64,000 nucleotides of DNA from Oscillospiraceae bacterium (GTDB lineage: Bacteria; Bacillota; Clostridia; Oscillospirales; Ruminococcaceae): NCBI GenBank assembly GCA_024684395.1, contig JAIKWY010000038.1, positions 1 to 64,000 on the forward strand, written 5' to 3'. Each line of letters starts with the position of its first letter. The first letter of the stretch is position 1. The translations under genes and the position numbers were made by a program. The notes under the pieces are model-generated. The model ran no database searches, was not told the origin of the DNA, and saw only the letters and a list, made by a program, of their open reading frames with translations. This document shows positions 5,150 to 64,000 of this stretch, in pieces.

Positions 5150-7270
5150 TTACTGATTTGCACGCTTCTTGGCAATGTCAGCCAGTGCTTCCTTACGGGA
5201 GAGATTGATCCTGCCCTGCTTGTCGATCTCGATGACCTTGACAACGATCTCGTCGCCGATCTCAACAACATCCTCCACACGCTCTACTCTGTGGTTGTCG
5301 AGCTGGGAGATGTGTACCAGGCCGTCCTTGCCGGGAGCGATCTCTACGAATGCACCGAAGTTCATCAGACGAACGACCTTGCCCTTGTAGATAGCGCCGA
5401 CCTCGGGATCATTTGCGATGGTCTCGATGATCTGGATCGCCTTCTTGGCATTGTCCATGTTCACGCCGCTGACAAATACGCCGCCCTCTTCGTTGATGTC
5501 GATCTTGACGTCGCACTCAGCGCAGATCTTCTGGATGACCTTGCCGCCCTGACCGATGACCTCACGGATCTTGTCCACCGGCACCTTGGTCTGGAGCATC
5601 TTGGGTGCATACTCGTTGACAGTCTCACGGGAAGCCGGGATCGCCTTCAGCATGATCTCATCGAGGATATAGAGACGAGCCTTGCGGGTCTTCTCAAATG
5701 CCTGCTCGATGATAGCCGGGGTCAGGCCGTCAACCTTGATATCTACCTGGATGGCAGTGATACCCTTGTGTGTACCGCCTACCTTGAAGTCCATGTCGCC
5801 GTAGAAGTCCTCAAGACCCTGAATATCGACCATCGTCATGAAGTCGTCAGAATCCGGGAAGGTGATCAGGCCGCAGGAGATACCTGCTACCGGAGCCTTG
5901 ATCGGCACACCGGCATCCATCAGAGCCAGCGTAGAGCCGCAGATGGAGCCCTGGGAGGTAGAACCGTTGGAGCTCAGTACCTCGGATACCAGACGCATTG
6001 CATACGGGAACTCCTCCACGCTCGGCAGAACGGGAACGAGAGCCTTCTCAGCCAGTGCGCCGTGACCGATCTCACGTCTGCCCGGGCCTCTGGAGGGCTT
6101 GGTCTCGCCTACGGAGTAGGACGGGAAGTTGTACTGATGCATGTAGCGCTTGGAGGTCTCCTCATCCAGACCGTCGATCTTCTGTGCATCGCTGATCGGG
6201 CCGAGGGTCGCGATGGTCATGACCTGTGTCTGACCTCTGGTGAACAGACCGGAACCGTGTACTCTCGGTACAAGACCAACCTCAGCAGCGAGCGGACGGA
6301 TCTCGTCGATGCCTCTGCCGTCTACGCGCTTACCGTTGTACAGCCAGTTGCGGACGATCTTCTTCTGGAGCTTGTACAGGCACTCGCCCAGCTTTGCAGG
6401 ACCGTTCTCGCCGTACTGCTCGTCAAATGCCTCGTGGACCTCATCGGTGATGGGCTTCATGCGGGCATCTCTTACATTCTTGTCATTGGTGTCGAGTGCG
6501 ACCTTGACCTTCTCGCCAACGAGTGCCTCAACAGCGTCGAACATCTCGTGCGGGATCTCCTGGGACTCGAACTCGAACTTCGGCTTGCCGATCTCCTTCT
6601 GGATGTCGGAGATGAAGGCTACCATCTTCTTGATCTCCTCATGACCGGTCATAATGGCGTTCAGCATGGTCTTCTCATCGACCTCGTTAGCACCTGCCTC
6701 GATCATGACGATCTTGTTGGCAGAACCTGCAACCGTCAGGTTCAGGTCATTCTTCTCTCTCTGCTCCTTGGTCGGGTTCAGCACGATCTCACCGTCTACC
6801 AGACCAACGCTGATGCCGGCGATCGGACCGTTCCACGGAATATCGGAGATGGAGATAGCGATGGACGTAGCAATCATGCCGGCGATCTCCGGAGAGCAGT
6901 CCGGATCTACGGACAGTACGGTCATGACAACGGAAACGTCATTGCGCATATCCTTCGGGAACAGCGGACGGATCGGGCGGTCAACCATACGGGAGGTCAG
7001 GATCGCCTTCTCGGTGGGCTTGCCCTCACGCTTGGTGAAGGAGCCGGGGATTCTACCTACGGAATACAGACGCTCCTCGTAGTCCACAGACAGCGGGAAG
7101 AAGTCGATACCGTCTCTCGGCTTTGCACTTGCGGTAACGTTCGCCATAACAGTGGTCTCACCATAGCGTACCCAGCAGGAGCCGTTGGACAGCTCGCAGG
7201 TCTTGCCGGTCTCTACGACCAGCGGACGGCCTGCATAGGTCGTTTCAAACTTTCTGTAATTCTCAAACAT
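5150..7270 (-). CDS. pnp: Polynucleotide phosphorylase
   Basis: 706 aa from ATG at 7270, which has AAGGAGGAAAATT directly in front. The longer open frame upstream to 7315 has no ribosome site. It is a phosphorolytic 3'-5' exoribonuclease of the RNA degradosome and forms a trimeric ring. Domain order: RNase PH-like core 1 (residues 1 to about 210), alpha-helical linker, catalytic RNase PH core 2 (about 310-540, with SEVLSSNGSTSQGSICG), KH (about 555-615, IREVIGQGGKVIQ) and S1 (about 620-690, GKVVRLMNFGAFVEI). The length is normal. It lies downstream of rpsO, the classic rpsO-pnp order. Confidence 0.97.
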   Translation of the reverse strand: MFENYRKFETTYAGRPLVVETGKTCELSNGSCWVRYGETTVMANVTASAKPRDGIDFFPLSVDYEERLYSVGRIPGSFTKREGKPTEKAILTSRMVDRPIRPLFPKDMRNDVSVVMTVLSVDPDCSPEIAGMIATSIAISISDIPWNGPIAGISVGLVDGEIVLNPTKEQREKNDLNLTVAGSANKIVMIEAGANEVDEKTMLNAIMTGHEEIKKMVAFISDIQKEIGKPKFEFESQEIPHEMFDAVEALVGEKVKVALDTNDKNVRDARMKPITDEVHEAFDEQYGENGPAKLGECLYKLQKKIVRNWLYNGKRVDGRGIDEIRPLAAEVGLVPRVHGSGLFTRGQTQVMTIATLGPISDAQKIDGLDEETSKRYMHQYNFPSYSVGETKPSRGPGRREIGHGALAEKALVPVLPSVEEFPYAMRLVSEVLSSNGSTSQGSICGSTLALMDAGVPIKAPVAGISCGLITFPDSDDFMTMVDIQGLEDFYGDMDFKVGGTHKGITAIQVDIKVDGLTPAIIEQAFEKTRKARLYILDEIMLKAIPASRETVNEYAPKMLQTKVPVDKIREVIGQGGKVIQKICAECDVKIDINEEGGVFVSGVNMDNAKKAIQIIETIANDPEVGAIYKGKVVRLMNFGAFVEIAPGKDGLVHISQLDNHRVERVEDVVEIGDEIVVKVIEIDKQGRINLSRKEALADIAKKRANQ

Positions 7271-11516: not shown

Positions 11517-11591
11517 AAGAATACCTCCTTCAAATACGCAGCCTCGTGTATATCTCAAGGTATCTTATAAAGAGCTTTGAAATAATACATT

Positions 11592-11690
11592 CAGCGGGAT
11601 GCGGACACTGTACCGCAAGGGTTCGCCCCTTTTCGTCCCCCCGGCAACTCCCCGTCCGGGCGGCACTTAACGCACAACGTCCTACTCTGT
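11592..11690 (-). ncRNA. Tetrahydrofolate (THF) riboswitch
   Basis: On the minus strand the conserved blocks occur in order: AGAGTAGGACGTT, GCGTTAAGTGCCG, GGGGAGTTGCCGG, GACGAAAAGGGGCGAACCC, and a closing CGCATCCCGCTG. These match my memory of the THF riboswitch consensus, in which GCGUUAAGUGCC and the flanking GAGUAG are nearly invariant. It starts only about 14 nt after the pfkA stop, so it may be reached by read-through or by a promoter inside the end of pfkA. It ends about 75 nt before the folT start. Confidence 0.9.
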
Positions 11691-11704
11691 GTATGAGTCT
11701 AAGA

Positions 11705-59204: not shown

Positions 59205-61166
59205 TCATCGGATATAATCCGACAGGCTGACATGCTGACCGGCACCGGCGGCGGCTGCATAGATCAGCACGATCGCTGCATCGGAGGCATTGATGATGCC
59301 GTCGCCGTTGACATCGGCTGCCTGCTCCTGCGCAGCGTTAAGACCGGAGCTGCCTTCTGCGCCGATGGAGGCGGCTGCTATCAGGATCAGCGCTGCATCA
59401 CTGGCATTGACGATGCCGTCTTCATTGAGGTCGCCGAGCCCTTTCTGCTCCGCAAGGTATTCTGTCCCGCAGAAGACGCAGGTCGCCTTGCCATCGCTGT
59501 CCGGCTCGTCATAGGAGGCATGTGCGCTGTGGACATATGCCCTGAACCGTAACTCATCCCCGGGCTGATCCGTGTAGAACACCTGTAATACATCATTGTA
59601 GATCTCCAGCATTCCCGGACCGGACTGCCCGGTCTTCCGGTTGGAAGCCTCGGCGTTGACGCTCACGAGGGTCATATAGCCTTCCTCGTCCGTGGTGTAG
59701 TTCCAGATGCTGTAGGCAGTGGGGGTCTTGGTGTAACTGAGCGTACTGCCTGTCTCATTGGTCGTGAGATAACTGCCGTTGGTCATCAGATAGAAGCCGC
59801 CTTCTGCTGCCTTTGCATAAAAGAGGGAAAGCTCCGTCTTCGGATACAGCATCTCAGCCGCAGGATCGGTGTCCGCAGACAGGATCTGCTGATTGTAGAT
59901 CTCTGCGAGCGGCGCCTTTCCGTTCTTGCAGACGAATACGACATGATCGCCGTCATGAAGGCTTTCTGACGGCTGGAATCCGAAGGCGTGGGTCAGTCTT
60001 TCATCGCAGACATCACAGAACTGATCGCTGTCCTTGTCGATATGATCCGTACACGCCGTCATCAGGATGCGCTCTGCGCCGCAGTTCCGGCAGGTCCTGG
60101 TGATACTGCCCTCGTGCAGACAGGTCGCCGGCTTTTCGGCTGTGATCTTGTAGTCATGATGGCAGCCTGCATGGGTCGGCGTCTGGAGGTGCTCCGGGAT
60201 CTCCCGCCCGAACAGCTTCCAGGCAAGCTCCGGATAGTCGATGAAGACGTTCCGGTTCCCCTGCACGGCATAGGCGCTGTCATTGCGCTGCATCTCCCAG
60301 GTATCCACAGGATCGTCCTCCATCCATTGCAGGAGCGTGTCCAGATCCTTCATGACCCTGACGCCGGTGTCACTGGTATCATCGGAGTCCAGCGTCGGGA
60401 TATCGTTCTTGGAGACATCGGAATAGAGATTCGGCTGCTCCCAGCGGGAGTAGATGTAGAGCAAGATGCGTGCCACATCACCCTTGACATCATCCTTGCA
60501 CTCGAAATAGCCCTCCACGTCGTTGACCCATGCATAAACGGTATCATTGAACACGACATCGGAGGTATACTTGTCGTACACGCCGTTGACATTGCCGAAC
60601 GCATAGTTGCTCTTCGCCTGGTTGACCTCGCTGACACTCGGACGAAGATGGTGCAGGTCGGCGCCGCCGCCCAGCTGGTTGAAGGAGGCACGGTTCTTCG
60701 GCCAGATGTGTTCACGCTCCATGCTGAACGACTTGGTATCGCCCGCAGATACATAGGGGATGTCGGTATAGAAGCCGATGAAATTATCTGTCCCCTTTGC
60801 GGCATCCGTGCATTTCCAGTAATAGGCAATCGCTCCCTCGGCATAGCCCTTGTAGATCGGCTGGAAGGTCTGCGTGTCTGCCATGAGCGTGTGGAGCGCA
60901 TCGTACAGCGGGTTGTTCTTCGTGGCAGCAAGGCTCGTGGAGGTATCGGATGCACCCTTCAAAGCGGAGAGCTTTTCATAGGTGTAATCGCCGGTATAAT
61001 AGCCGGCTGCCGATGCCGGGAGCGATGCCGCATCTGCTGCGTGACGGACTTCGGTATTGGCATCCGGCAGTGCAGGTGCCGCAGAGACCGGCAGCGCCGC
61101 CGGACTGAGCGCTGCGGTTGTCATCAGAACGGACAGCATGATAGCGAGCAGTTGGGTTTGTTTCAT
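59205..61166 (-). CDS. Secreted endonuclease I-family nuclease with C-terminal dockerin
   Basis: 653 aa from ATG 61166 (AAGGAGG six bases upstream; the ATG two codons earlier touches the ribosome site). Signal peptide 1-30. Endonuclease I (PF04231) domain at about 55-330 with the His-metal motif REHIWPKNRASF and DLHHLRPSVSEVNQAKSNYAFG. A Cys/His segment (CHHDYKITAEKPATC, TCRNCGAE, FCDVCDE) that may bind zinc. A beta-rich module of about 170 residues, then a dockerin of two repeats (LGDLNEDGIVNASDAALILI, AADVNGDGIINASDAAIVLI). It would digest extracellular DNA or RNA while attached to the cellulosome. Confidence 0.9.
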   Translation of the reverse strand: MKQTQLLAIMLSVLMTTAALSPAALPVSAAPALPDANTEVRHAADAASLPASAAGYYTGDYTYEKLSALKGASDTSTSLAATKNNPLYDALHTLMADTQTFQPIYKGYAEGAIAYYWKCTDAAKGTDNFIGFYTDIPYVSAGDTKSFSMEREHIWPKNRASFNQLGGGADLHHLRPSVSEVNQAKSNYAFGNVNGVYDKYTSDVVFNDTVYAWVNDVEGYFECKDDVKGDVARILLYIYSRWEQPNLYSDVSKNDIPTLDSDDTSDTGVRVMKDLDTLLQWMEDDPVDTWEMQRNDSAYAVQGNRNVFIDYPELAWKLFGREIPEHLQTPTHAGCHHDYKITAEKPATCLHEGSITRTCRNCGAERILMTACTDHIDKDSDQFCDVCDERLTHAFGFQPSESLHDGDHVVFVCKNGKAPLAEIYNQQILSADTDPAAEMLYPKTELSLFYAKAAEGGFYLMTNGSYLTTNETGSTLSYTKTPTAYSIWNYTTDEEGYMTLVSVNAEASNRKTGQSGPGMLEIYNDVLQVFYTDQPGDELRFRAYVHSAHASYDEPDSDGKATCVFCGTEYLAEQKGLGDLNEDGIVNASDAALILIAAASIGAEGSSGLNAAQEQAADVNGDGIINASDAAIVLIYAAAAGAGQHVSLSDYIR

Positions 61167-61223
61167 AAGCATCCTCCTTCATGGTCAGCTTAGGGATCCG
61201 GGTGCGGGTCAACTGTTACATAT

Positions 61224-61252
61224 ATTATACAACTTTTCCGGGAAAACTGCAA
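61224..61252 (-). promoter_or_regulatory. Promoter of the endonuclease gene
   Basis: Minus strand TTGCAG (61252-61247), 17 bp, TATAAT (61229-61224). Confidence 0.87.
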
Positions 61253-61337
61253 GTACCTGCCGGAAAAATGCGTGACATGCAGAAATGACGCCGATCCGGA
61301 GGGAGCCCTGTAGCCTGCGGCAGTGCTCACAATACGC

Positions 61338-61366
61338 TTGACAAGCCCCCTATTATATGCTATACT
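61338..61366 (+). promoter_or_regulatory. Promoter of the RT-associated RNA and RT gene
   Basis: TTGACA (61338-61343), 17 bp, TATACT (61361-61366). The expected start, about 61373, is the first base of the left inverted-repeat arm. Confidence 0.88.
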
Positions 61367-61372
61367 TTTTGA

Positions 61373-61563
61373 GAGGGAAGGTGCATCCTTCGGGATGCGT
61401 CTGCAAGAAATCCGGTGGTATGGCATAAAAGGGCTATGCAGACGGCTGCCGTATCGTCGTATTTTGACGCACTTTCGCGCTTGAACTCGTCCTTCCCTCA
61501 TTTATTCTTTGGGGGACATCTCACAGCATCATTGCAGAGGTGCCTCTACAGTAGGAGTTTTTT
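61373..61563 (+). ncRNA. Structured leader RNA upstream of the reverse transcriptase, flanked by inverted repeats
   Basis: GAGGGAAGG (61373-61381) and CCTTCCCTC (61491-61499) are perfect complements enclosing about 109 nt. Inside lie GCATCC-TTCG-GGATGC (61383-61398, a UUCG tetraloop), GTCTGCA/TGCAGAC (61399-61405, 61437-61443), ACGGC-T-GCCGT (61442-61452) and CGTC/GACG (61455-61458, 61466-61469). After the right arm comes AGAGG/CCTCT near 61535-61548, then AGGAG and the RT start. The arms recall the a1/a2 repeats of retron msr-msd RNAs. Function is inferred from layout only. Confidence 0.6.
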
Positions 61564-62823
61564 ATGGGCGTTTTTGATAAAATGCTGTCTGATACATATA
61601 AGCAGGCTTTTATCCGTAAAAAAATGGCACAGCTCGGAACAGAGCAAAGCTATCTTGATGCTTTGAGCGAATATGTGACAAGCAGTGCGTGCGATGAGGA
61701 TGTTCTGAGGCTGAAAAACGGCGATTACTTTCTCAATGCACCCACTCGTTTTTTTGTTCGGAAAAGCCACTCGACCAAGAGGCGCAAGGTCTACAGCTTC
61801 AAGGGCAAAGACAAGTTCCTGCTGCAATACATCACCTTCGTGCTGATGGATCTTGATGACATCCATGTGGATTCCCTCTGCTCGTTCCGGCGGGACAACC
61901 GCACGGAGTTCTTCTTCGAGAAGCTCCGGCGGAAGGATCTGCACCGGAAGCTCTATGTTATGAAGACCGACATTCATGATTTCGGCGGCTCGGTCGATCA
62001 GGATATCGCCCTCCGGCTGCTGGAGGAGGTATTCCGGGACGACCCCGCATTTATGGCGTTTCTGCGGCAGCTGCTCACCCGGAATGCGTTTTATTCCCGT
62101 GGGGAGCTGGTGGAGGAACGTGTCTCGATCATCGAGGGGCTGCCGCTTGGGAGCTTCATCCAGAGCGTCTATCTTGCGGAGCTCGACAGGATCCTTGAAG
62201 CCAATGCCGTGATCTATATGCGCTACACCGATGATATCGCCTTCTTTACAGATTCTCCCGAAAAGGCAGAATGGGCGCTGGCGCAGGTAAAGGAGATCTG
62301 CGGGAAGCGTGCTGTCACCATCAATGAGGACAAAACGGAGATCATCCCGCCCGGTGAGCCGGTCGAGTTGCTCGGCATCGAGATCTTCAACGGCGGTTTT
62401 GACATCGGGGAAAACTCCCTGCAAAAGCTGCTCTCCAAGCTCAAGCGCTATCGTGACAAGCTCCTCCGTCGGGAACGGCGGGGCAGATGCACCAGAGAAA
62501 CGGCGATGCAGAGAATGATACAGTTCGCCGACAAGACATTTTTCGGAAAAAAACTGAACGACCATGAATTTAACTGGGTGATACACGCATTCCCGATCAT
62601 CACCCGGACGGATTCGCTCGAACGGCTCGACAGCTATGTGCAGGACTGCATCCGGGTCGTCGGTTCCGGAAAGATGGGGAATGCCAGATACCGGATACGC
62701 TATAAGGATATGTGTGCGGCAGGGTACCGTAATCTGGTACATGCCTATTATCATGGATATACCCTCGAGGAGGTGACGGCGGATGCATGCGCCTCTCGTC
62801 ATGCAGATACAGGCATCGGATAA
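61564..62823 (+). CDS. Reverse transcriptase of unassigned group
   Basis: 419 aa from ATG 61564 (AGGAG six bases upstream). RT motifs in order: YVMKTDIHDFGGSV (catalytic Asp of motif A), EGLPLGSFIQSVYLAELD (motif B), YMRYTDDIAFF (motif C, YTDD), TINEDKTEI (motif D) and ELLGIEIF (motif E). After the thumb come a basic helix (LRRERRGRCTRETAMQRM) and a C-terminal ARYRIRYKDMCAAGYRNLV then HAYYHGYT segment. I see no maturase or endonuclease domain, nor the retron NAxxH or VTG markers. No target-site repeat pair of a diversity-generating element was noticed in the visible part. It overlaps the next gene by 41 bp. Confidence 0.88.
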   Translation: MGVFDKMLSDTYKQAFIRKKMAQLGTEQSYLDALSEYVTSSACDEDVLRLKNGDYFLNAPTRFFVRKSHSTKRRKVYSFKGKDKFLLQYITFVLMDLDDIHVDSLCSFRRDNRTEFFFEKLRRKDLHRKLYVMKTDIHDFGGSVDQDIALRLLEEVFRDDPAFMAFLRQLLTRNAFYSRGELVEERVSIIEGLPLGSFIQSVYLAELDRILEANAVIYMRYTDDIAFFTDSPEKAEWALAQVKEICGKRAVTINEDKTEIIPPGEPVELLGIEIFNGGFDIGENSLQKLLSKLKRYRDKLLRRERRGRCTRETAMQRMIQFADKTFFGKKLNDHEFNWVIHAFPIITRTDSLERLDSYVQDCIRVVGSGKMGNARYRIRYKDMCAAGYRNLVHAYYHGYTLEEVTADACASRHADTGIG

Positions 62824-64000
62824 CGGTGCGGCAGCACTTGCCATGATGCTTGGCTATTACAAACGATATGTGACGATACAGGAGCTGCGGGAGCACTGCA
62901 TTTCCTCCCGGAACGGCTCCGATCCCGGACAGATCTGCCGTGCAGCGGCGCATTACGGGCTGAAAGCCGAGGTCGTGCCGCTTCCGAAGGAAGCGCTTGC
63001 GGCGCAGAAGTTCCCGCTGCTGATCTGCTGGAAAAAGAAGAACTATGCCGTACTGCTGAAGGTCGGCAAAAAGAGCGCTTCGGTGCTCGACCCTGCCAAG
63101 GGAAAATACAAGATCACGACCGAAAAGCTGCTGTCGAGCTATGCCGGAAAGGTCATCACGCTCTCGCCTACGGAAGAGTTTGAGCCCGGCGGCAAGGTAC
63201 CGGGGATCCTCAGCATCCTGACCGAACGGCTGAACGGCTACAAGAAATGGATCGTCCTGCTGTCGGCATTTTCGGCTGCGGCGGTTTTCCTGAACATGCT
63301 GGCACTGTCGCTCAAACAGCAGATGATCGACAAGGTGCTGTCCGGCGATGACAGGACATGGCTCCCGCTCCTCGCAGGCGGGATGCTCGCCACACTTGCG
63401 GTACAGATCGCCGTCACGATGACGGACACGGTCGTCTCCGCAAGAGTGAGCCGGAAAATGGCTGCGGCATCGGGGGCGGATATCTATAAACGGCTGTTCC
63501 GGCTGCCGCTTTCCTATTTCGACAAGATCAGCCGGGGGGAGATCATGGATCGTCTCGAACGCAACATGACGATCGACAAGTCCTTGCTCTCCACGCTGGC
63601 GCCGAAGCTGTTCAACACGATCGCACTGTGCTTCTATCTGATCCTGCTGTTCAGCTATAATGCGCTGCTTTCGGCGGTGCTGATCGGCGTTTATCTGCTG
63701 ATCACGATGCTGATGCTGCTGCTCCAGAATTATATGATCATGACCAAGCGCAGCGTGATCGCCTCCAACGAAGCCATGCGCTCCTCCATGCTCAATGCGA
63801 TCAATTCGATCGATTCCATCAAGGCGAGCGGCAGCGAGGATCGGTTCTTCCATCTCTGGAACGACCAGATGAACGAAGCCACCGCCGCTGACAGAAGGAC
63901 GATCGGTCTGGATGCGCTGTATTCCATGCTCCAGACCTTGCAGAATGTGTCATCCTCAGCGATCCTGCTGATCATGGGTGCCTATCTCATCATCAAGGGA
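62783..64000 (+). CDS. NHLP-type peptide-export ABC transporter with degenerate C39 peptidase domain (cut by the window end)
   Basis: 406 codons are visible and the frame is open to 64000. The ATG at 62783 follows GAGGAGGTGACGGCGG, inside the RT gene. The N-terminal 130 residues are a C39 peptidase fold: QIQASDNGAAALAMMLGYY matches the Q-x-x-x-x-x-C-G-A-A-A-L block with Asn14 where the catalytic Cys belongs. NYAVLL replaces NHFVVL (His lost) and LDPAKGK keeps the Asp. A six-helix ABC membrane domain follows from about residue 155 (KKWIVLLSAFSA, PLSYFDKISRGEIMDRL). The ATPase part lies beyond the window. Confidence 0.87.
   Translation, partial: MHAPLVMQIQASDNGAAALAMMLGYYKRYVTIQELREHCISSRNGSDPGQICRAAAHYGLKAEVVPLPKEALAAQKFPLLICWKKKNYAVLLKVGKKSASVLDPAKGKYKITTEKLLSSYAGKVITLSPTEEFEPGGKVPGILSILTERLNGYKKWIVLLSAFSAAAVFLNMLALSLKQQMIDKVLSGDDRTWLPLLAGGMLATLAVQIAVTMTDTVVSARVSRKMAAASGADIYKRLFRLPLSYFDKISRGEIMDRLERNMTIDKSLLSTLAPKLFNTIALCFYLILLFSYNALLSAVLIGVYLLITMLMLLLQNYMIMTKRSVIASNEAMRSSMLNAINSIDSIKASGSEDRFFHLWNDQMNEATAADRRTIGLDALYSMLQTLQNVSSSAILLIMGAYLIIKG

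What the first reader, a model, noticed from the sequence alone, without database searches (positions are those of the whole stretch)
61338..62823. Reverse transcriptase preceded by a promoter-defined RNA with retron-like flanking inverted repeats
The RT has complete catalytic motifs (TDI, YTDD) but lacks visible retron markers (NAxxH, VTG), an intron maturase and a diversity-generating variable-repeat pair. The 190 nt leader begins exactly where a consensus promoter would start transcription and opens with a 9-nt arm whose perfect complement lies 109 nt later. Between the arms are several hairpins, one with a UUCG loop. RT-linked leader RNAs serve as templates in retrons and in some defence RTs, so this may be a new RT-ncRNA pair.
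Basis: partly seen in the sequence, partly recalled or inferred. Interest (0 to 1): 0.85.

Follow-up and report, generated by a model that had tools for sequence, protein, structure and literature searches.

The report
Odd reverse transcriptase–RNA–exporter operon
A bacterium carries a small structured RNA paired with an unusual reverse transcriptase; the pair looks like a far-diverged branch of a known but unexplained bacterial RNA-copying system, here wired to a membrane exporter instead of its usual protein partner.

Summary
In detail: promoter, 9-nt arms 109 nt apart, UUCG hairpin and an intact RT are present. The RT is not a retron, DGR or group II RT but a divergent UG26 (PADLOC E 1.8e-95). 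The leader RNA is a probable divergent relative of Rfam RT-5 (24.7 bits, under the 45.7 cut-off; 27.6 bits with an independent model).

In 297 genomes of the family, RT-5 above cut-off occurs in exactly the 12 genomes with a UG26 RT besides the window's own. The RNA lies apart from the RT in 4 of those 12 genomes and on the opposite strand in the nearest relative, L009.

Window and L009 form a two-member branch: no RTasCOG2852 partner found, Gly where 42 of 42 aligned relatives keep the aromatic sugar-gate residue, and an NHLM-type ABC exporter pair whose C39 domain has lost Cys and His.

Verdict: new variant of a known kind; probably an RT-RNA defence or stress system with an exporter as partner. 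Function untested.

The parts
61338..61366 (+). sigma-70-type promoter (TTGACA, 17 nt, TATACT, TG before -10)
   Evidence: the -10 ends 6 nt before the P1 5' arm
61371..61499 (+). structured ncRNA, probable divergent relative of Rfam RT-5 (RF03026)
   Evidence: 24.7 bits Rfam; 27.6 bits with model R1 built without window or L009, next best in 60000-64000 is 6.6; L009 copy 96 of 126 aligned bases identical
61373..61381 (+). P1 5' arm GAGGGAAGG
   Evidence: L009 has a different but again complementary pair of arms
61491..61499 (+). P1 3' arm CCTTCCCTC
61383..61398 (+). extra hairpin with UUCG loop, also in L009 (one pair shorter)
61399..61404 (+). pseudoknot strand GUCUGC (RT-5 consensus GCCUGC)
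   Evidence: 6 pairs formed in 21 of 21 RNAs, 3 of 6 pairs with changes on both sides
61438..61443 (+). pseudoknot strand GCAGAC (RT-5 consensus GCAGGC)
61564..62823 (+). UG26-type reverse transcriptase, 419 aa
   Evidence: PDLC03764 E 1.8e-95; alignment A1
61969..61992 (+). motif A DIHDFGGS (residues 136-143); Gly141 at the aromatic sugar-gate position
   Evidence: Gly in window and L009 only; Phe in 42 of 42 other rows
62224..62235 (+). catalytic YTDD
62783..64000 (+). NHLM-type ABC exporter subunit 1 with degenerate C39 domain; overlaps the RT end by 41 nt (from its ATG) and runs to contig position 64909; a second exporter subunit follows at contig 64943-67108, outside the window

Best explanation
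This is a far-diverged member of the UG26 RT-ncRNA systems. SHOWN by sequence: a promoter lies just before a ~129-nt RNA (P1, UUCG hairpin, pseudoknot, long P3) that resembles RT-5, followed by a UG26-type RT with complete catalytic carboxylates and two NHLM-type ABC exporter subunits in one apparent operon. INFERRED: the RT binds the RNA as a separate, trans-acting molecule (scaffold and probably template), and the RNP makes a nucleic-acid product, possibly on phage infection or stress, as studied DRT enzymes do. In the UG26 systems of the family and order samples the accompanying protein is RTasCOG2852; in this branch the exporter pair takes that place as a membrane effector or outlet. Its C39 domain has lost Cys and His, so it should not cleave double-glycine leaders.
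For: RT: PADLOC RT_UG26 E 1.8e-95, next UG27 3.3e-23; L009 1.2e-89. RNA. Association: RT-5 over cut-off in 12 of 297 family genomes, exactly the 12 with a UG26 RT other than the window's own; RT-5 on fetched RT loci in 8 of 12 family, 11 of 11 order and 13 of 15 class loci, one of the 13 below cut-off. Trans: RNA away from the RT in 4 of 12 genomes, opposite strand in L009. Covariation. RNA, RT, ABC1 and ABC2 kept in L009 at 62/65/55% protein identity (ABC2 over the 497 aa on the contig) amid different upstream genes. C39 loss. Precedent for RT plus ncRNA in defence: DRT2 and DRT9 (passages).
Against: No function, expression or product is shown. The window RNA is under Rfam's cut-off, the L009 RNA gave no RT-5 match at E<=0.5, and the whole-genome RT-5 search found no match in G000. 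With the independent model the reverse strand of a true RT-5 RNA scored 30.0 bits, above the window's 27.6. Only two members of this branch were found. Defence is inferred from PADLOC naming and precedent; neighbours were not searched for defence genes beyond ABC1's first 406 aa, which matched nothing in PADLOC. The exporter link rests on two genomes, one a MAG whose contig ends inside ABC2. The template is not identified; an endless ORF (a DRT2-like sign) was not shared by L009.
Confidence: 0.6

Rival explanations
1. Cis-regulatory leader: the RNA is a riboswitch- or attenuator-like 5' UTR controlling an RT-exporter mRNA and has no role with the RT protein.
For: In the window it lies between a strong promoter and the RT start codon.
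Against: Opposite strand to the RT in L009; away from the RT in 4 of 12 genomes; RT-5 over cut-off in 0 of 284 family genomes without a UG26 RT.
Confidence: 0.08
2. Peptide (RiPP or bacteriocin) export operon in which the RT is a passenger.
For: Exporter subunits are best matched by NHLM_micro_ABC1 and ABC2.
Against: Six ORFs of 20 aa or more overlap 61330-61563, none precursor-like by eye; no other ORF of 100 aa or more reads on the operon strand between RT and the end of ABC2, save one of 100 aa inside ABC2; C39 Cys and His lost in both members while 5 of 5 aligned exporter relatives keep them; RT kept with both exporter genes in L009.
Confidence: 0.12
3. A retron: the leader is an msr-msd giving msDNA.
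For: Inverted arms flanking a structured leader before an RT; weak match to the retron St85 RT profile (47.4 bits, cut-off 235).
Against: Arms correspond to the P1 helix of the RT-5-type RNAs; no VTG or NAxxH; UG26 outscores every other PADLOC group by more than 200 bits.
Confidence: 0.03
4. Substrate-switched RT: Gly at the sugar-gate position lets the enzyme use ribonucleotides (or bulkier substrates), giving an RNA or mixed product.
For: Gly141 in both members, Phe in 42 of 42 others; this position is the gate in MMLV RT (F155), where F155V raises NTP use (passage of PMC8857657); RTs have a bulky residue where RdRps have the second Asp of DX4D (passage of PMC4634563).
Against: No biochemistry; Phe140 or another residue could take over; in BoMoC RT the analogous F534G lost some activity (same passage).
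Confidence: 0.15

Closest known systems
UG26 RT + RTasCOG2852 (PADLOC, listed under DRT) with RT-5 RNA (Rfam RF03026)
   Same: RT profile; RNA with P1, pseudoknot core and P3; RNA near the RT in most loci examined
   Different: No RTasCOG2852 found (own genome none at E<=1); exporter pair instead; DFGGS for DYFNS; extra UUCG hairpin; RNA below Rfam cut-off; RT 27-35% identical to those found
DRT2 and DRT9
   Same: UG-type RT with a structured ncRNA; DRT2 RNA also has a pseudoknot (PMC12596737, passages)
   Different: Different RT group; no conserved endless ORF; a DRT9-like poly-U template was not tested for here
NHLM/NHLP-type ABC exporter pair
   Same: Both subunits best matched by NHLM_micro_ABC1/ABC2
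   Different: Scores under NCBIfam cut-offs (631.1 of 853.3; 503.2 of 709.4); C39 Cys and His lost; no precursor or maturation gene seen

Membership tests
UG26 RT | Best match to the RT_UG26 profile over nearly full length | tested here: met
   318 bits, residues 1-397 on 1-394 of 398; next 80 bits
UG26 RT | Motif A with YFN after the catalytic Asp, as in the other rows aligned | tested here: not met
   FGG in window and L009; YFN in 42 of 42 others
Canonical UG26 system | RTasCOG2852 gene beside the RNA | tested here: not met
   No match in own genome at E<=1; none in window, L010, L009 by the profile built here. Found near RNA or RT in 22 of 23 family+order systems, 5 of 15 class loci plus one weak hit
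RT-5 RNA (RF03026) | Rfam gathering score 45.7 | tested here: not met
   24.7 bits; called a probable divergent relative, not a member
RT-5 RNA (RF03026) | Pseudoknot GCCUGC/GCAGGC (seen in the RNAs here; not among the Rfam model's pairs) | tested here: met
   GUCUGC/GCAGAC, compensatory
   for the motifs; msDNA not testable
Group II intron | Intron RNA around the RT; TIGR04416 over cut-off | tested here: not met
   No intron RNA in the window; 71.6 of 300 bits
DGR | Template/variable repeat pair | tested here: not met
   leader only as query
DRT (defence) | Protects against phage | not testable with these tools
   no call
NHLM exporter | Active C39 Cys-His-Asp | tested here: not met
   Cys to Asn14 in both; His to Asn (window) or Tyr (L009); Asp kept

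The most novel reading that the evidence does not exclude
In this branch a UG26 RT has lost its sugar gate and become an ncRNA-programmed polymerase that accepts ribonucleotides (or makes an RNA/DNA hybrid), and a dedicated peptidase-dead ABC exporter pair acts on or exports the product: an RT system whose output is a membrane transport event rather than a toxin or nuclease.
Probability: 0.1. Interest if true: 0.92.

Novelty: new variant of a known kind. Interest (0 to 1): 0.62.

Why it matters
UG26 is listed as a candidate defence RT and RT-5 is an RNA family named only for its neighbour; the genome-by-genome match in the family sample ties the two together and supplies RNA anatomy (terminal helix, pseudoknot) missing from the Rfam model, which makes the system testable. 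RNA and RT apart in several genomes argue for a trans-acting RNA. The window's branch is a natural experiment: related RNA core and RT, but a changed active site and an exporter in place of RTasCOG2852.

Tried and rejected
Retron, group II intron, DGR: see Membership tests. Endless ORF over RNA concatemers (DRT2-like): window 3 of 6 frames stop-free, L009 0 of 6, so no support. AlphaFold of window RT with L009 RT: mean pLDDT 40.7, discarded and not searched. A 27-nt genome match (G183) is chance inside a coding frame that reads cinA-like by eye. Viral contigs: no relative with P0001 or A5; 4 distant ones with A1, none with RT-5; RNA core pattern 0 matches. Phage records: 1 weak match; plasmids: 85 records with weak matches, 14 of the 20 shown annotated as group II (ltrA). 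Promoters upstream of 35 other RNAs: 13 of 35 with 9 of 12 or better, mean 5.91 against 5.27 shuffled, so only weak support for a promoter at P1 in general. The window's P1 score (24) is no higher than the mean of mismatched arms from different RNAs (23.6), so P1 in the window rests on position and on the different but complementary arms of L009. A structure of RTasCOG2852 was not asked for, as the tool admits no genome-search loci.

Full report
Observation. The RNA folds somewhat better than shuffles (z -2.50). The leader has no second copy in its genome; 15 other short matches have E 0.021 or worse. The operon continues beyond the window: the RT end overlaps ABC1 (contig 62783-64909), then ABC2 (64943-67108), then a GC-rich hairpin with a T run (read by eye) before a two-component system.

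RT identity. Pfam RVT_1; NCBIfam gives only sub-cut-off matches (best group II, 71.6 of 300); PADLOC gives RT_UG26 at 318 bits against 80 for the next. With P0001, UG26 relatives were found in 12 of 296 other family genomes (E<=1e-20), 0 of 37 other genus genomes (1e-15), 10 of 393 order genomes with 11 loci (1e-25) and 15 of 390 class genomes (1e-25). These RTs are 27-35% identical to the window's. One genome-contig scan found L009 (JAILKW010000299.1, titled Lachnospiraceae bacterium MAG) at 62%; that scan needs exact short peptides, so others may be missed. In a 44-row tree window and L009 pair with 100/100 support on a branch of 4.06 changes per column; their place among the others is not resolved.

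RNA identity. Rfam places the window RNA at RT-5 with 24.7 bits, below the 45.7 cut-off (E 0.0072 for 241 bases against all 4227 families). L009 gave no RT-5 match at E<=0.5. A model built only from 14 canonical RNAs with their arms gives 27.6 bits to 61362-61502 and 26.7 to L009, each best in its 4-kb stretch (next 6.6 and 10.5). In a 198-kb search over 14 sources their E-values were 0.011 and 0.016, and the reverse strand of one true RT-5 RNA scored higher (30.0 bits, E 0.0038). So homology is likely, not certain, by score alone; the shared pseudoknot, P1, place by a UG26 RT and conservation with L009 add to it.

Association. Family samples of 297 genomes, with the same handles wherever both outputs list them, were searched for the RT and for RT-5 (which uses stricter filters that lose weak matches). 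RT-5 over cut-off: 12 genomes, all UG26-positive. UG26-positive without it: only the window's own. Without UG26: 0 of 284 over cut-off; best sub-cut-off score 23.5 bits; 0 of 14 control genomes. On the short RT loci RT-5 lies near the RT in 8 of 12 (family), 11 of 11 (order) and 13 of 15 (class, 12 over cut-off; L075 and L080 none). In the four family misses the RNA is elsewhere: about 3 kb away on the other strand in G192, on other contigs in G071, G246 and G282, each time beside the same kind of ~165-aa gene. A profile made here finds that gene in 22 of 23 family+order systems (missing with L025) and in 5 of 15 class loci plus one weak hit. PADLOC names the two copies tested (L065, L029) RTasCOG2852; Pfam (2 copies) and NCBIfam (4 copies) gave nothing over a cut-off.

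Structure. Over 21 RNAs the six pseudoknot pairs form in every sequence, three with changes on both sides. The core structure as a whole has 91.1% of cells paired and 19 of 27 pairs with double changes; 0 of 500 shuffles reach the paired-cell or covariation values (4 of 500 for pair types); slid versions give 33-41% paired. The structure was drawn from these same, related sequences, so the controls flatter it. P1 on 18 sequences: 92.5% paired, 8 of 11 pairs with double changes (L009's 3' arm was cut off there). Per sequence, helices of 9-23 bp (one mismatch and G-U allowed) were found in 21 of 21, with at most 5 of 200 shuffles as good; own arms score 34.2 on average, mismatched arms 23.6, the window's own 24. 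Window against L009: 38 consensus pairs, 27 same, 4 changed on one side, 7 on both, 0 broken.

What is different here. (a) Motif A is DFGGS in window and L009; 42 of 42 other rows have YFN (the 42 include 4 viral rows and one very distant row). Residue 141 is the position known as the sugar gate (passages of PMC8857657 and PMC4634563; the placing at Asp+5 follows from the DX4D wording and the alignment). (b) No RTasCOG2852. (c) Two NHLM-type exporter subunits. tblastn of ABC1/ABC2 against 43 relative loci gave L009 at 65/55% and, at 27-36%, hits in L027, L028, L029, L031 and L033; 26 of the 43 loci have only about 1.5 kb of flank, so an exporter further off would be missed there. C39: Cys to Asn14 in both, His to Asn or Tyr, Asp kept; 5 of the 12 other matches were aligned and all 5 keep Cys, His and Asp. 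Walker and signature motifs of ABC1 look intact by eye. (d) Extra UUCG hairpin next to the pseudoknot strand.

L009. Upstream lie prmC- and prfA-like genes. The RNA is at 6134-6007 on the minus strand, followed by a C-run/TTT/G-run hairpin and T's (by eye; not listed by the terminator scan). The RT has a promoter-like site at 6219-6248, but 2 sites were found where shuffles give 1.8. An assembly error cannot be excluded.

Literature. Passages seen: PMC12483538 (DRT9), PMC12596737 (DRT2), PMC8934634 (myRT), PMC10504277 (names UG26 in seep viruses), PMC8857657, PMC4634563. Searches for UG26 + reverse transcriptase (3 papers, one relevant), RT-5 RNA (0), DRT9 + UG26 (0), COG2852 + reverse transcriptase (0), and listings, did not show the UG26/RT-5 link in print; most subscription papers are not held. 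That RT-5 comes from a 2017 survey of candidate RNAs, and UG26 with its COG2852 partner from the UG/Abi survey, is recalled.

Mechanism. Shown: gene order, RNA structure by covariation, the RT-RNA association, residue changes. Inferred: RNA bound by RT, polymerisation, defence role, exporter as effector or outlet.

Noticed in passing
window 59205-61172 (-): Divergent neighbour: a long secreted-looking protein whose C-terminus reads like two dockerin repeats (by eye); no link to the RT shown.
   Followed up: no
L010 7169-14773 (contig 67169-74773): Two-component system, LolD/MacB-like ABC ATPase, FtsX permease and a Pfam Beta-lactamase-family protein just after the operon.
   Followed up: partly
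window 11590-11691 (-): THF riboswitch, 86 bits.
   Followed up: no
G000: The genome (4.2 Mb) is larger than each of its 37 genus mates searched (1.3-2.9 Mb); some of it may be from another organism.
   Followed up: no
L044, L048 (G498): One genome carries two UG26 RTs on one contig, each with its own RT-5 RNA.
   Followed up: partly
L081-L084: Four viral contigs with distant UG26-like RTs (DYFNSI, YADD) and no RT-5 RNA; possibly another RT group.
   Followed up: partly
L074: RT-5 lies about 1.2 kb from its RT match rather than directly beside it.
   Followed up: no
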